Positions 43,623-58,575 of a DNA stretch of 64,000 nt are shown here, piece after piece. Position numbers and translations under genes: made by a program. The stretch is from Acidimicrobiaceae bacterium. GTDB lineage: Bacteria > Actinomycetota > Acidimicrobiia > Acidimicrobiales > RAAP-2. Position 1 is the stretch's first letter. Each line of letters starts with the position of its first letter. A model generated the notes under the pieces. The model saw nothing but the letters and a program-made list of their open reading frames with translations. It did not search any database and had not been told where the DNA came from. The stretch is taken from positions 118,006 to 182,005 of the forward strand of contig PMTF01000015.1 in the NCBI GenBank assembly GCA_003167415.1, written 5' to 3'.

Positions 43623-43652
43623 CGGGGATTGGCACCGAGTACAAAAGAATGT

Positions 43653-43686
43653 TCGGTTGGGGAAGTGACACCATACGAACAACCGA
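43653..43686 (+). repeat. Left-end hairpin candidate of the TnpB element
   Basis: TCGGTTG (43653-43659) is the exact complement of CAACCGA (43680-43686), with a 20-nt loop, 50 bp upstream of the tnpB ATG. Confidence 0.45.
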
Positions 43687-43735
43687 CATGTAACACCAGT
43701 TAAGTACCGTTTATTACATCGATCAGACTTATCGA

Positions 43736-45166
43736 ATGCGAGCCGTGCTGGTGCCGCTTGACCCCACGCCCGCCCAAGAGCAATTGTTGCGTAGTTACTG
43801 CGGCGCGGCGCGCTTCGCCTACAACTGGACAGTGGCAATTGTCAAGGAGAACCTTGACAAGCGGGACGAGGAGCGCCGGGCGGGCATCGTGGAGTCTCAT
43901 CTCACGAAGTCCCTCTCCTGGTCGGCATGGTCGATGACTCCGTTGTGGAACTCGGTGAAAGATGAGGTTGCACCGTGGCACTGCGACGTCACGAAGCACG
44001 CCTTCATCAGCGGGGTCACTAACGCCGCGACCGCACTGAAGAACTTCGACGAGTCGAGAAAGGGCGTGCGCAAAGGGCAACCCGTCGAATTCCCCGCGTT
44101 CAAAGATCGCCACTCGAAGCTGTCCTTCACAATGATCGAATTCAAACCCCAGTATTGGTTGTCCGAGGACTCTCGCCACGTGCGCCTCGTTCTGCCTCGT
44201 GCCTCGACAGACCCTCGGATCTCGCGGCGGCGCAAGCAACTCCAGTGGCTGCACACGACCGAGTCATTCCGTCGCCTCAAGAAGAAGGTCATTTCCGGAG
44301 AGTGGACTATACAGGCGGTAACTATCTCCTTCGTCGGTGGTCGTTGGCGGGCCTCGTTCTCAGTTCGTCAGTACGTCGTCCACGCCCGGAGCGCAATACG
44401 GCTACGCGGATCACTGGTGGGTGTCGATCTCGGCGTGAAGTACCTGGCCACCCTGACGGTGTCAGTCAACGGGCTCAGCGACGAGAATGGTCACGTTGAA
44501 AATCCGCGATACCTAGACGCGCACTTCGAACGGCTCGCCAAACTCGATCGTCAACTGTCACGCTGCATGAAGGGATCGAAGAACCGCGCGAAGCTCCTGC
44601 TGCGCCGCCAACGCCTTCACGGGAGGATCTCCCGAACGAGATACCTCTACTTGCACCGACTCACAACGACATTGACCGGAGGCTTTGAAACAGTGGTGAT
44701 CGAGAACCTCGACGTGGCGGGCATGGTGAGGAGGAAAAAGAAGAACACCGCGAAGGCATTAAGGCGTTCAATCCACGACGCCGGTTGGAGTGAACTGCGA
44801 CGCCAACTCACATATAAGACCGACGACTGCGGACACCGCGTCATCGTCGTGAACCAGTTCTACCCCTCATCGAAGAAGTGCTCTCACTGTGGCGAGACGA
44901 AAGCCAAGCTCGCCCTCAGTGATCGCGTCTTCGAGTGCAGTAACTGCGGCATCAGTCTCGACCGGGACGTGAACGCTGCACGCAATATCCGTGATGAAGG
45001 AATTCGTCTTCTCACTAACGAAGCATCAACCGTCGCGGGGCACCAACCCGGGACGTTAAACGCTGACTCGAGGGACCGTGAGACGAAACCGCCCAGGCGG
45101 GGACGCGGGGACCGTTACCAGAGCAGAACCACGCAGCCAGCGCGAGAGTTGTCACCGTTGGCGTAG
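43736..45166 (+). CDS. tnpB: TnpB RNA-guided nuclease (IS605 OrfB)
   Basis: TnpB proteins are RNA-guided DNA nucleases, ancestral to Cas12. This 476-residue copy looks intact. The N-terminal helix-turn-helix-like part (LDPTPAQEQLLRSYCGAARFAYNW) is followed by a split RuvC domain with D231 (VGVDLGVKYLATL), E323 (VVIENLDVAGM) and D411 (DRDVNAARNI). The zinc ribbon is C382-x2-C385 and C401-x2-C404. After about residue 425 the sequence becomes a charged, poorly conserved tail whose DNA probably also encodes the guide RNA scaffold. It sits between the SIP gene and ftsK with no tnpA. Codon use and base composition appear slightly less GC-rich than the neighbours, consistent with transfer. Confidence 0.93.
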   Translation: MRAVLVPLDPTPAQEQLLRSYCGAARFAYNWTVAIVKENLDKRDEERRAGIVESHLTKSLSWSAWSMTPLWNSVKDEVAPWHCDVTKHAFISGVTNAATALKNFDESRKGVRKGQPVEFPAFKDRHSKLSFTMIEFKPQYWLSEDSRHVRLVLPRASTDPRISRRRKQLQWLHTTESFRRLKKKVISGEWTIQAVTISFVGGRWRASFSVRQYVVHARSAIRLRGSLVGVDLGVKYLATLTVSVNGLSDENGHVENPRYLDAHFERLAKLDRQLSRCMKGSKNRAKLLLRRQRLHGRISRTRYLYLHRLTTTLTGGFETVVIENLDVAGMVRRKKKNTAKALRRSIHDAGWSELRRQLTYKTDDCGHRVIVVNQFYPSSKKCSHCGETKAKLALSDRVFECSNCGISLDRDVNAARNIRDEGIRLLTNEASTVAGHQPGTLNADSRDRETKPPRRGRGDRYQSRTTQPARELSPLA

Positions 45167-45200
45167 GTAGTGGAAAGGGTGGTGGCAACGCCGCTCGGGG
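45000..45200 (+). ncRNA. Candidate omega-RNA region overlapping the tnpB 3' end
   Basis: In characterised IS605 elements the guide RNA overlaps the end of tnpB and extends to the right end, with the guide lying beyond it. Here the end of the frame contains a CCGC/GCGG stem near 45089-45100 and the 9-bp terminal stem 45148-45189. Limits and expression are inferred, not seen. Confidence 0.4.
45148..45189 (+). repeat. Right-end hairpin candidate of the TnpB element
   Basis: GTTGTCACC (45148-45156) pairs with GGTGGCAAC (45181-45189) over 9 bp with one G-U, spanning the tnpB stop codon. Confidence 0.5.
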
Positions 45201-45234
45201 TTGGTCGGTGGTTCGTGCGCTGAATAGCCTTGTG

Positions 45235-45240
45235 TAAGTT
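45235..45240 (+). promoter_or_regulatory. -10 candidate (TAAGTT) of ftsK
   Basis: TAAGTT ends 8 nt before GTG 45249; TTCGTG lies 17 bp further upstream. The gap is slightly longer than at other leaderless starts. Confidence 0.4.
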
Positions 45241-45248
45241 TGATGGTT

Positions 45249-47549
45249 GTGGCACAAGCGCGACACAAGAAAAAGCCGGTGAAGAAGACGGCTCGAGGAT
45301 CCGCGGCGAGCGCCAGCGTCTGGGAACGCCACACCCGCGACCTCTGGATTCTCCTGCTCGTGGTGATTGGTGCGTTCTGCGTCCTGGCCGAGGCTGGGGC
45401 GCTCGGGCCCGTCGGGCGCGGCATCTCGAAGGGCCTGGCCATCGCGTTCGGCGTCGGACGATTCGCCCTGCCCATCATGTTGATCGCGTTGGGCGCGGCG
45501 CTGGTCGCGGGGAAGATCGAAGTCGAGCGAACTCGAGTCGCCTGGGCCATTGCGCTCGGGGTGATCAGCATCTGTGGCATCGGGCACCTCGCCGGAGGGC
45601 GACCGTCGCTGCACGCGACCACGAAGGAGTTCGCGCACGCGGGCGGTTGGCTCGGTGCACTGATCGGCGGCGGCCTCGACAAGGCCATCGGGATCGCCGG
45701 AGCACTAGTGGTGCTGCTGGCGTTACTGATCATCGCCATCATGATCGGCACCGGGATCGGACTGCGCGCGCTCTACGGCGGCACCGCGACGTTCTTTCGC
45801 GCGGTGGGCTCGTGGCTCGCACGGTGGTGGTCGAGTCGCGAACGCCCCGAGATCGTGGACGAAGAGACCGAGGAGCCGGCCCCGAAGCGCGTTCGCGCGG
45901 TGCCGGAACCACTCGACGTCTTTGTCGCTCCGGAGGAGTACGAGGAAGAGTACGGAGAAGACGAGTACGAAGAGGAGTACGGGGAGGACGAGGAATCCGA
46001 ATCGGAGTACGACGACGTTCCCGAGATGGAGAGCGATTGGGAGTTGCCGTCGCCGTCGCTGCTCATGCGCACCAAGGACGTGAAGCAAGACCGCGCGGCG
46101 ATCGAAGACATGGGTGGGGAACTGGTCGAAGCGCTCGCGGCCCACGGCGTGGACACCACGCTCGTCGGATTCACGGTCGGTCCGACCGTGACGCGCTACG
46201 AACTCGAACTCGGTCCGGGCGTCAAGGTTTCGAGCGTGACGTCACTCCATAAGGACATCGCCTACGCCATGGCCTCGCCCGACGTGCGCATTCTCGCCCC
46301 GATACCGGGACGCTCCGCCATCGGCGTCGAGGTGCCCAATCGACAGCGAACGCTCGTCGCGTTGGGTGACCTGCTGGCTTCGGAAGAGGCCGCCAACTCC
46401 ACGCACCCCTTGGACGTGCCGTTTGGCCGGGACATCTCGGGCAAGACCCTCATCGCCAATCTGGGTGAGATGCCCCACGTCCTCATCTCCGGGGCGACCG
46501 GAGCCGGAAAGAGTTCACTGATCAACTCCATCGTGACGGCGCTCGTGATGCGAGCGACTCCGGAGCGACTCCGACTCATTTTGGTCGACCCCAAGCGCGT
46601 GGAGATGGGCCAGTACAACGACCTACCTCATCTCCTCGCGCCGGTCGTGGTCGATCCGAAGAAGGCCGCCGGGATGCTCGCGTGGGCCGTCAAGGAGATG
46701 GAGCGACGCTACGACATCCTCGCCGAGAGCGGCGCGCGCGACATCACCAGTTACCAGCAAATGATCGCGCGCGGCGAGTTGGAACCCGAGACCAGCGACG
46801 ACGAGCGCGTGGCCGAGATCTTCGAACGTACGACCGGCCTGGAGTCCGACGTCGAAGCTCCGCCCGGTCCCGAGGACCTGCCTTACATCGTGATCGTGGT
46901 CGATGAGTTGAACGACCTCATGTTGGTGGCGGCGCGCGACGTGGAGGAATCAGTGGTGCGCATCGCCCAGATGGCCCGCGCCGTCGGTATCCACCTCGTG
47001 CTCGCGACGCAACGACCGAGCGTCGACGTCATCACCGGCGTCATCAAGGCCAACATTCCCAGTCGCATCGCCTTCGCGGTCTCGTCACTGGCGGACAGTC
47101 GCGTCATCCTCGACCAAGCGGGCGCGGAGCGTCTCATCGGCAAGGGCGACATGTTGTTGGTGACGGCCTCGTCGAACGTCGCGCGGCGCCTCCAAGCGCC
47201 ATGGGTCTCGGAGAGTGAAGTGGCGCGGGTCGTCGAGGCGTGGCGCGCGCAGGGCGGTCGCCGTGAGAACGTGGTCGCGCTCGACGTACCCCGCGGCCGC
47301 GGTGGCTCGATGGGCGGAGGATCGAGCGACGACGACGATGAAGTGCTCGCCCAGGCGCGCGAGTTGATCATTCGAACGCAGTCCGGTTCGACGTCGATGC
47401 TGCAGCGCAAACTGCGCGTCGGCTTCGCACGGGCCGGTCGCATAATGGACCAGCTCGAGCAAGAAGGCGTGGTGGCCGCGGGCGATGGGTCGAAGGCCCG
47501 CAAAGTGCTCATGACGCCCGAAGAGTACGACGAACAGACCTCGCTGTAG
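45249..47549 (+). CDS. ftsK: DNA translocase FtsK/SpoIIIE
   Basis: Septum-located motor that pumps DNA during division and activates XerCD at dif. Four N-terminal membrane helices lie between about residues 35 and 175. An acidic linker (about 215-260) contains repeated EEYGEDE-like units. The motor has Walker A GATGAGKSS (about 415-423) and Walker B YIVIVVDELNDLM. The C-terminal gamma winged helix (LQRKLRVGFARAGRIMDQLEQEGVV) reads KOPS sites. GTG 45249 was chosen from the TAAGTT position; ATG 45243 and TTG 45240 are in frame and possible. Length 766 from the chosen start. The next gene starts 3 bp after the stop. Confidence 0.95.
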   Translation: MAQARHKKKPVKKTARGSAASASVWERHTRDLWILLLVVIGAFCVLAEAGALGPVGRGISKGLAIAFGVGRFALPIMLIALGAALVAGKIEVERTRVAWAIALGVISICGIGHLAGGRPSLHATTKEFAHAGGWLGALIGGGLDKAIGIAGALVVLLALLIIAIMIGTGIGLRALYGGTATFFRAVGSWLARWWSSRERPEIVDEETEEPAPKRVRAVPEPLDVFVAPEEYEEEYGEDEYEEEYGEDEESESEYDDVPEMESDWELPSPSLLMRTKDVKQDRAAIEDMGGELVEALAAHGVDTTLVGFTVGPTVTRYELELGPGVKVSSVTSLHKDIAYAMASPDVRILAPIPGRSAIGVEVPNRQRTLVALGDLLASEEAANSTHPLDVPFGRDISGKTLIANLGEMPHVLISGATGAGKSSLINSIVTALVMRATPERLRLILVDPKRVEMGQYNDLPHLLAPVVVDPKKAAGMLAWAVKEMERRYDILAESGARDITSYQQMIARGELEPETSDDERVAEIFERTTGLESDVEAPPGPEDLPYIVIVVDELNDLMLVAARDVEESVVRIAQMARAVGIHLVLATQRPSVDVITGVIKANIPSRIAFAVSSLADSRVILDQAGAERLIGKGDMLLVTASSNVARRLQAPWVSESEVARVVEAWRAQGGRRENVVALDVPRGRGGSMGGGSSDDDDEVLAQARELIIRTQSGSTSMLQRKLRVGFARAGRIMDQLEQEGVVAAGDGSKARKVLMTPEEYDEQTSL

Positions 47550-57879: not shown

Positions 57880-58503
57880 TTAGTAACTCCGCAGGACCGA
57901 AATGACTTTGCCGAAGAGGAAGACTTCGCGAGCGTCGAACTCCATGGGCTCCATCGTCGAATTCTCCGGCTTCAGGACCACCCGATTTCCCTGGGGGAAG
58001 TAGCGCTTCACCGTCGCCTCACCGCCGGGGATCTCGGCGACGACGATCTCTCCCTTGTTGGCCGCCGTCTGACGCTGCACGACCACGAAGTCGCCCGGAA
58101 GGATGCCGGCTTCGATCATGGACTCTCCTCGGACTTCTAACACGAAGCTGTCGCCGCGGCCGGCGAACTGCTCGGGAATCGACATGAGTTCGTGCGCAAT
58201 CTCCTGGGCGAGGACACCCGTGCCGGCCGCGACGTCACCCACGAAGGGGATGTAGCGGATGCGCTGATCCGGCGCCGGGTTCTCGACGTCGAGCCGAACG
58301 GTCAAGGTGCGGGGCTGCTGCGGATTCTTTTCGATGAAGCCGGCTCGTTTCAGTACTTCAATGTGGTTGGCGACGGTCGCCGGTGATTTCAGCCCGACGT
58401 GATCACCGATCTCTCGAATAGTCGGAGGGAAATTACGCTCTCGCTGACAAGAGATGATGAATTCAAGGATCTGGCGACGCATGGGAGTCAGTACTTCGGC
58501 CAT
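57880..58503 (-). CDS. lexA: LexA repressor
   Basis: SOS regulator that self-cleaves when bound to RecA filaments. The winged-helix DNA-binding part covers residues 1-68 (PPTIREIGDHVGLKSPATVANHIEVLKRAG). The cleavage site is A93-G94 (VAAGTG). The catalytic dyad is S128 (GESMIEAG) and K166 (ATVKRYFP). Length 207. The ATG has AAAGGAAG upstream. Its promoter carries two LexA boxes, so it is autoregulated. No SOS partner gene is adjacent. Confidence 0.97.
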   Translation of the reverse strand: MAEVLTPMRRQILEFIISCQRERNFPPTIREIGDHVGLKSPATVANHIEVLKRAGFIEKNPQQPRTLTVRLDVENPAPDQRIRYIPFVGDVAAGTGVLAQEIAHELMSIPEQFAGRGDSFVLEVRGESMIEAGILPGDFVVVQRQTAANKGEIVVAEIPGGEATVKRYFPQGNRVVLKPENSTMEPMEFDAREVFLFGKVISVLRSY

Positions 58504-58518: not shown

Positions 58519-58536
58519 TACGAACAGTTGTTCGTA
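58519..58536. promoter_or_regulatory. LexA (SOS) box 1
   Basis: A palindrome with 7-bp arms, TACGAAC and GTTCGTA around AGTT, matches the actinobacterial consensus CGAACnnnnGTTCG perfectly. It touches the lexA -10 (TATCCT) and covers the expected transcription start. Confidence 0.92.
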
Positions 58537-58564
58537 GGATACCCCAGAAGCGGACCAAAATCAA
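58536..58564 (-). promoter_or_regulatory. lexA promoter
   Basis: On the minus strand TTGATT (58559-58564) and TATCCT (58536-58541) are separated by exactly 17 bp. LexA box 1 overlaps the -10 side and box 2 overlaps the -35. Confidence 0.78.
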
Positions 58565-58575
58565 ACACCTGTTCG
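58562..58575. promoter_or_regulatory. LexA (SOS) box 2
   Basis: CAAACACCTGTTCG differs from CGAACnnnnGTTCG at one base. It lies 41 bp from box 1, about four helical turns, and overlaps the lexA -35. Confidence 0.7.

What the first reader, a model, noticed from the sequence alone, without database searches (positions are those of the whole stretch)
43640..45200. Intact, tnpA-less TnpB element with candidate ends and guide RNA
Seen: all three RuvC acidic residues (D231, E323, D411) and both zinc CxxC pairs are intact. There is no tnpA. Inverted repeats flank the gene, and the right-end 9-bp stem spans the stop codon. The final 50 codons look like RNA-constrained rather than protein-constrained sequence. 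Known: TnpB is an RNA-guided nuclease whose omega-RNA overlaps its 3' end. Inference: this copy may be an active nuclease, possibly retained beside ftsK for another role.
Basis: partly seen in the sequence, partly recalled or inferred. Interest (0 to 1): 0.6.

Follow-up and report, generated by a model that had tools for sequence, protein, structure and literature searches.

The report
TnpB transposons inserted in promoter boxes
A small mobile element carrying an apparently intact RNA-guided DNA-cutting enzyme sits inside the core promoter box of a cell-division gene, and its relatives in sister species mostly sit at the same position of other genes' promoters, which suggests a mobile-DNA family that targets promoters with near single-base precision.

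Summary
The element is real: window 43658-45235, an IS200/IS605-type, tnpB-only element. Its RuvC triad (D231/E323/D411) and zinc-finger cysteines are invariant in an alignment of 11 copies, and an omega-RNA-like right end overlaps its last ~46 codons. No Y1 or serine transposase was found in this genome, and no Y1 in any of the 8 carrier genomes. Six mutually diverged copies (74-82% DNA identity) lie in this genome.

The unexpected part is position. Relatives without the element carry ..GTTCGGT|AAGTTGG.. before ftsK: the insertion split the ftsK promoter -10 box after its first T (T|ANNNT), and the element's last T rebuilds it. In the genus 13 of 16 independent sites read T|ANNNT (background 39 of 205; P about 1e-7; 8 of 10 sites outside the discovery set). 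In 10 of these 13 a start codon follows within 10 nt, as in leaderless genes. A sister clade shows 0 of 12. Empty ftsK, rpiB and ruvC loci keep the box.

Best reading: a TnpB element lineage targeted to promoter -10 boxes, kept and probably spread by RNA-guided homing on conserved gene starts. Targeting, homing and nuclease activity are inferred, not shown. At ftsK the insertion also separated a LexA (SOS) box from the promoter.

The parts
43642..43655 (+). degenerate SOS (LexA) box CAAAAGAATGTTCG, left half decayed; relatives have CGAAC-N4-GTTCG here
   Evidence: 9 of 22 ftsK loci of relatives carry the perfect palindrome; the same motif stands upstream of lexA in this window
43651..43657 (+). 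left flank / target GTTCGGT (candidate TAM side, family pattern CNGT)
   Evidence: empty-site comparison; 15 left flanks: -1 T 15/15, -2 G 13/15, -4 C 11/15
43658..45235 (+). whole TnpB element (1578 bp; the last T could equally be host)
   Evidence: ends set by six in-genome copies and by empty sites of relatives
43658..43735 (+). left end; a hairpin folds in some relatives, not in this copy
43736..45166 (+). tnpB, RNA-guided nuclease, 476 aa, RuvC D231/E323/D411, zinc finger C382/C385/C401/C404
45026..45235 (+). omega-RNA scaffold region overlapping the tnpB 3' end and the right end
   Evidence: loss of codon-position signal from about codon 431; consensus fold of 45116-45235 with two-sided changes at 7 of 29 pairs
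45177..45196 (+). conserved omega-RNA hairpin GGGTGGTG-GCAA-CGCCGCTC
   Evidence: alignment A2 columns 63-82, including GC to CG in 2 of 15 sequences
45197..45235 (+). terminal right-end hairpin region plus linker ending TTGTGT
45235..45240 (+). ftsK promoter -10 box TAAGTT, split by the insertion and rebuilt with the element's last T
   Evidence: box present at this point in 21 of 22 ftsK loci of relatives
45236..45255 (+). predicted 20-nt guide = ftsK -10 box and gene start
   Evidence: sequence just past the right end; one mismatch to the empty locus in six relatives
45249..47549 (+). ftsK; probable leaderless start GTG 45249 (ORF open from 45240)
   Evidence: GTGGC kept in several relatives in which the upstream ATG is lost

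Best explanation
This is one copy of a tnpB-only IS200/IS605-type element family, found here in one genus of Acidimicrobiaceae, several of them from peat. At most sites (13 of 16) the element lies precisely inside a promoter -10 box: the junction falls after the first T of TANNNT (position -12/-11 on the non-template strand), downstream of a short CNGT-like target. The element's terminal T rebuilds the box, so the downstream gene keeps its -10 while its upstream control region is pushed 1.6 kb away. Shown by sequence: the ends, the empty sites, the T|ANNNT position, the absence of Y1 and serine transposases in this genome, purifying selection on TnpB, and the RNA-like tail. Inferred: that the boxes are working promoters; (i) that the insertion step is targeted to the -10 box, plausibly because a single-strand (Y1-type) transposase supplied in trans uses the DNA melted at promoters; (ii) that TnpB with its omega-RNA cuts empty alleles (guide = -10 box plus gene start) so that recombination copies the element in, which is homing rather than transposition and would explain six diverged copies in a genome without a transposase.
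For: Empty sites: ftsK TANNNT at the insertion point in 21 of 22 relatives; TANNNT within 16 nt before the start at rpiB in 27 of 27 scored loci (2 of 29 skipped by the script's anchor) and at ruvC in 29 of 29 (sequences). Junctions: 15 of 18 right ends and 13 of 16 independent sites read T|ANNNT; +5 is the only position of +2..+40 with such a majority. Background intergenic GTA with T at +5: 39 of 205; P = 1.3e-7, and 5.3e-5 for the 8 of 10 sites outside the six discovery copies. All 13 have a co-directional ORF start within 53 nt, 10 of them within 10 nt; of the 3 exceptions two have no ORF of 80 aa or more starting within 250 nt and one starts at 97 nt. Sister clade 0 of 12 (Fisher P 1.5e-5). 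No Y1 in any of the 8 tnpB carriers, while 7 other genomes of 99 have it. Core dN/dS 0.11-0.23 in 45 pairs. Homing: no recent duplicates (74-82% identity); six own copies as one clade weakly rejected (p-AU 0.025); G050, 94.6% identical at the ruvC locus, gave no element match and has an empty rpiB site; right-flank identity at rpiB is 89-91% in the first 300 nt against 95-99% further out; at the shared GDH site the elements differ more (79.3%, core dS 0.89) than the flanks (88.7% right, 86.4% left; GDH dS 0.52).
Against: No RNA or protein data; -10 boxes are inferred from motif and spacing. Six discovery copies gave the pattern, so only 10 sites are out of sample, and 3 of 16 sites do not fit. 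Selection could leave only promoter-preserving insertions. At the second shared site (WYL gene, L068/L242) the right ends differ less (87.7%) than the flank (84.2%), which does not repeat the GDH result, and the two GDH copies are not rejected as a clade (p-AU 0.199). Guides are well conserved at ftsK and ruvC but not at rpiB (one relative with 1 mismatch, the other 26 with 3-11). Many empty ruvC loci have GTT, GAT or CT rather than GT before the A, so the target pattern is loose there. Left-flank identity at rpiB is uneven (79-97%). Loss in G050 instead of gain here is possible; its sites other than rpiB and ruvC were not inspected. Window end hairpins are weak, and so are those of two of four relatives' left ends, so this copy may be immobile. 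dS near 1 is close to saturation.
Confidence: 0.65

Rival explanations
1. Untargeted insertion plus selection: the family inserts after any CNGT-like sequence, and only insertions that keep a working promoter (the element end supplies the T of the -10 box) in front of useful genes survive.
For: The rebuilt -10 box makes such insertions tolerable; 13 of 16 sites lie close to gene starts.
Against: Selection should also spare sites further upstream or between convergent genes, yet the junction falls on one base step; intergenic GTA sites have T at +5 in only 39 of 205 cases; the sister clade does not show it (0 of 12).
Confidence: 0.25
2. Ordinary decaying tnpB copies with no present activity, inherited vertically and lost at random.
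For: Weak end hairpins here, frameshifted copy in G015, an interrupted copy in G073 (L071), solo right ends and an internal deletion (L051, L244, L242).
Against: Core dN/dS 0.11-0.23 in all 45 pairs, invariant catalytic residues, two-sided changes in the omega-RNA fold, patchy distribution (8 of 99 genomes).
Confidence: 0.2
3. Exapted regulator: TnpB with its guide binds its own gene-start targets and regulates the downstream gene, as nuclease-dead TldR proteins do.
For: The guides cover the -10 box and gene start at 13 of 16 sites.
Against: The RuvC triad is intact, unlike TldR as recalled; at the occupied ftsK locus the target is preceded by TTGTGT, not CNGT, so self-binding is not expected.
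Confidence: 0.06

Closest known systems
ISDra2 TnpB (IS200/IS605 family; PMC8612924, passages seen)
   Same: RuvC and zinc-finger TnpB, right-end RNA overlapping the tnpB 3' end, guide from DNA past the right end, insertion 3' of a short target without duplication
   Different: No tnpA here; target looks like CNGT followed by ANNNT of a -10 box, not TTGAT; the solved TnpB chains 8bf8/8h1j match mainly over profile positions 202-422
tnpB-only IS200/IS605-type elements (IS1341 is named in the abstract of PMC9956272; that it lacks a transposase is recalled; PMC8612924 passages mention isolated tnpB genes)
   Same: tnpB only, no transposase gene
   Different: Placement in promoter -10 boxes
TnpB gene drive on plasmids (PMC11870625, abstract seen)
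   Same: TnpB cuts element-free copies and so spreads the element
   Different: Proposed here between chromosomes of sister species, without transposase
TldR RNA-guided transcription factors (PMC13418256, start of abstract in the listing; rest recalled)
   Same: RNA-guided TnpB relatives that act on gene expression
   Different: TldR are nuclease-dead (recalled); this protein keeps all catalytic residues

Membership tests
IS200/IS605-type TnpB element | TnpB with HTH, RuvC D-E-D and zinc finger | tested here: met
IS200/IS605-type TnpB element | omega-RNA (reRNA) overlapping the tnpB 3' end | tested here: met
   by sequence only: codon-position signal and two-sided changes in a consensus fold; the RNA itself was not seen
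IS200/IS605-type TnpB element | insertion 3' of a short target without target duplication | tested here: met
   empty sites; left-flank pattern CNGT
IS200/IS605-type TnpB element | subterminal hairpins at both ends | tested here: inconclusive
   8 ends folded: left ends of L076 (z -2.55) and L002 (z -1.45) and the right end of L051 (z -2.26) fold; left ends of L005 (+1.01), L006 (+0.02) and the window (+1.26), and right ends of L002 (-0.65) and the window (+0.46) do not stand out
IS200/IS605-type TnpB element | Y1 (HUH) transposase gene tnpA | tested here: not met
   none in the genome nor in any of 8 tnpB carriers; so filed only as tnpB-only, non-autonomous
IS607-type TnpB element | serine recombinase tnpA | tested here: not met
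   no PF00239 match in the genome
TldR (nuclease-dead TnpB regulator) | loss of RuvC catalytic residues (recalled) | tested here: not met
   triad invariant
RNA-guided nuclease in action | guide- and TAM-dependent DNA cleavage | not testable with these tools
   needs biochemistry

The most novel reading that the evidence does not exclude
A transposon lineage uses the promoter itself as its address: insertion occurs at the upstream edge of the transcription bubble (between -12 and -11 of the -10 box), and its RNA-guided nuclease, now guided to a conserved box plus gene start, spreads and keeps the element between strains as a transposase-free homing element of housekeeping promoters.
Probability: 0.3. 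Interest if true: 0.82.

Novelty: new variant of a known kind. Interest (0 to 1): 0.63.

Why it matters
Eight library searches on this question gave listings in which no title or abstract start describes a mobile element that inserts at a fixed base step of the -10 box, or transposase-free chromosomal homing by TnpB; I read listings, two abstracts and passages of one paper, and most subscription papers are outside the library. If true, it gives a natural promoter-finding element, an explanation for the persistence of tnpB-only elements, and a route by which core genes lose their upstream control. Here ftsK would have lost its SOS box.

Tried and rejected
Serine-recombinase (IS607) origin: rejected, no resolvase in the genome. 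A Y1 transposase elsewhere in the genome: none; the 8 Y1 loci fetched from seven sister genomes carry no matching right end. A relative with the same right end outside the genus: none seen; 1 of 397 genomes of the order matched, this one, with strict filters that can lose weak matches. Rfam: no match in the window at gathering scores. Chance T at +5: rejected. Special link to ftsK: rejected, five other loci in the same genome. The clade test for the two GDH-site copies is inconclusive (p-AU 0.199); the six own-genome copies as one clade gave p-AU 0.025 on a weakly resolved tree. A first count of ftsK boxes and guide mismatches used a poor anchor (17 of 22, four loci misplaced) and was replaced for the boxes. 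A first dN/dS script failed on one mis-framed copy and was repeated. A first end alignment used three loci on the wrong strand and was repeated. No structure prediction was made.

Full report
WHAT IS THERE. The ORF at 43736-45166 is a TnpB (PF12323, PF01385, PF07282). Its RuvC triad and zinc-finger cysteines are invariant in an alignment of 11 sequences, itself included, and a profile of them matches solved TnpB structures. The assembly holding the window (2.66 Mb, 96.6% complete) gives 17 TnpB matches: six close copies (76-100% protein identity), the window's included, and eleven weaker ones. It has no Y1 transposase and no serine recombinase. Aligning the six copies with flanks gives sharp ends.

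THE ENDS AND THE EMPTY SITE. In relatives the gene next door (a siderophore-interacting-type protein) and ftsK are separated by about 55 bp, with ..GTTCGGTAAGTTGGATGG.. where the window has ..GTTCGGT, then 1578 bp, then AAGTTTGATGG. The element is therefore 43658-45235, with no target duplication beyond an ambiguous single T.

RNA-LIKE TAIL. Over 45 pairs of ten copies the protein core shows the expected third-position excess (0.170/0.110/0.426); codons 431-450 do not, codons 451-476 only a little. Tail dN is still below dS (0.078/0.181), so the tail is not free of coding-like signal. One own-genome copy carries an in-frame TGA there. The right end folds into conserved hairpins with two-sided changes at 7 of 29 pairs; the covariation term is small, -1.3 kcal/mol. 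This is the layout of the ISDra2 reRNA, whose last ~16 nt are flanking DNA (PMC8612924, passages).

THE POSITION. The right junctions of the six own copies suggested T|ANNNT, the actinobacterial -10 box (5 of 6; written down). I then collected right ends in the genus with a covariance model: 18 in 9 of 99 genomes. Fifteen belong to tnpB copies; of these L073 is frameshifted, L071 appears interrupted and L072 lacks its start at the end of the sequence held. Three have no tnpB gene: a solo end before ruvC (L051), a solo end before an alpha/beta-hydrolase-like gene (L244), and an internally deleted copy (L242). Two sites are occupied in two species each, leaving 16 independent sites; 13 read TANNNT. 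The others are L076, L004 and L070. Intergenic GTA in the window and nine further stretches has T at the same place in 39 of 205 cases (crude gene calls), giving P = 1.3e-7 for all 16 and 5.3e-5 for the ten sites outside the discovery set, of which 8 match. All 13 matching sites have a co-directional ORF start within 53 nt, ten of them within 10 nt as for leaderless genes; of the exceptions, two have no ORF of 80 aa or more starting within 250 nt and one starts at 97 nt. Genes by Pfam: ftsK, a JAB peptidase, ammonium transporter (L004, an exception), Glu/Leu dehydrogenase, UvrD-type helicase, aminotransferase, SRP54 (ffh), beta-eliminating lyase, IMP dehydrogenase-like, a hexapeptide transferase; by reading only: rpiB, ruvC, the hydrolase, and a WYL-type protein (no Pfam match at 1e-10).

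EMPTY SITES SHOW THE BOX WAS THERE FIRST. ftsK: TANNNT at the insertion point in 21 of 22 loci (the 22nd could not be aligned there). rpiB: TANNNT within 16 nt before the start in 27 of 27 scored loci, two of 29 skipped by the anchor. ruvC: the same in 29 of 29. A sister clade (46-54% identical proteins) has a different right end, and none of the 12 ends I could place (of 14 loci looked at) has TANNNT, taking its conserved final TA as the junction (read by eye; Fisher P 1.5e-5). So the habit belongs to this lineage, not to TnpB elements in general.

HOW IT MAY SPREAD. No two copies in this genome exceed 82% DNA identity, so they are not recent duplicates; one clade of the six own copies is weakly rejected (p-AU 0.025). 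G050, 94.6% identical at the ruvC locus, gave no element match and has an empty rpiB site. Right-flank identity at rpiB is 89-91% within 300 nt of the insertion and 95-99% further out; the left side is uneven (79-97%). At the GDH site shared with G067 the elements differ more (79.3%) than the flanks (88.7% and 86.4%), with tnpB core dS 0.89 against 0.52 for the host gene, though a common origin is not rejected (p-AU 0.199). Against this, at the WYL site shared by G121 and G073 the right ends (87.7%) are not more diverged than the flank (84.2%). Guide targets are well conserved at ftsK (1 mismatch in 20 nt in six of 22 relatives, four loci misplaced by that script) and ruvC (0 mismatches in 8 of 29, 1 in 12 of 29), but not at rpiB (1 mismatch in one of 27, 3-11 in the rest). 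TnpB acts as a gene drive on plasmids (PMC11870625, abstract). I infer transposase-free homing. Y1 transposases occur in 7 of 99 genomes of the genus, none of them carriers.

TARGET PATTERN. Fifteen left flanks read T at -1 in 15, G at -2 in 13, C at -4 in 11 (the register of L006 is uncertain by one base). Many empty ruvC loci differ (GTT, GAT or CT before the A). The element's own right end reads TTGTGT before the guide, without the C at -4, which would spare the occupied locus.

CONSEQUENCE FOR FTSK. Nine of 22 relatives have a perfect CGAAC-N4-GTTCG before the ftsK box. The same motif, exact, stands upstream of lexA in this window (58521-58534; LexA by Pfam), with a one-mismatch copy nearby, so it is very likely the SOS box. 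In the window it is decayed in its left half and lies 1.6 kb from the promoter. Loss of SOS control of ftsK is a prediction.

CARRIERS. RNA-model scores link the unnamed carrier genomes to named MAGs of Acidimicrobiaceae, most of them labelled palsa or bog, i.e. peat (scores coincide for nine ends). Among 397 genomes of the order only this one matched (strict filters).

LIMITS. All is sequence inference; MAGs are incomplete; -10 boxes are recognised by motif and spacing; the TAM is a flank pattern; activity of this copy is unknown and its end hairpins are weak. The actinobacterial TANNNT -10 consensus, leaderless spacing and the -12/-11 edge of the transcription bubble are recalled knowledge.

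Noticed in passing
window 57880-58503 (-) with 58521-58534 and 58562-58575: lexA with an exact and a one-mismatch SOS box in its upstream region; the exact box lies 18 nt before the start.
   Followed up: yes
L051:1500-1590 (G005), L192: A solo right end of about 77 nt directly upstream of ruvC, whose start codon overlaps an SOS-box-like palindrome; may be a remnant or a domesticated promoter part.
   Followed up: partly
L242 (G073) and L244 (G067), reverse strand: An internally deleted element (left and right ends kept) at the same WYL-gene site as L068 of G121, and a second solo right end before an alpha/beta-hydrolase-like gene, by reading on the other side of the intergenic region that carries the uvrD copy in this genome.
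   Followed up: partly
L007, L008, L016, L017: Four more distant TnpB genes (33-36% identity) in the same genome; their ends were not determined.
   Followed up: no
L002 about 2975-2990 (G000:C17): A 12-base insertion with two N in the right end of one copy, probably an assembly artefact.
   Followed up: no
L088-L100, L156: The sister clade of TnpB elements ends in TGCCGAAC[CT]TA; some ends seem by eye to lie at gene 3' ends rather than promoters.
   Followed up: partly
L198/L199 versus L051: ruvC is empty in the window's genome and in its close relative G050 but carries the solo end in G005.
   Followed up: yes
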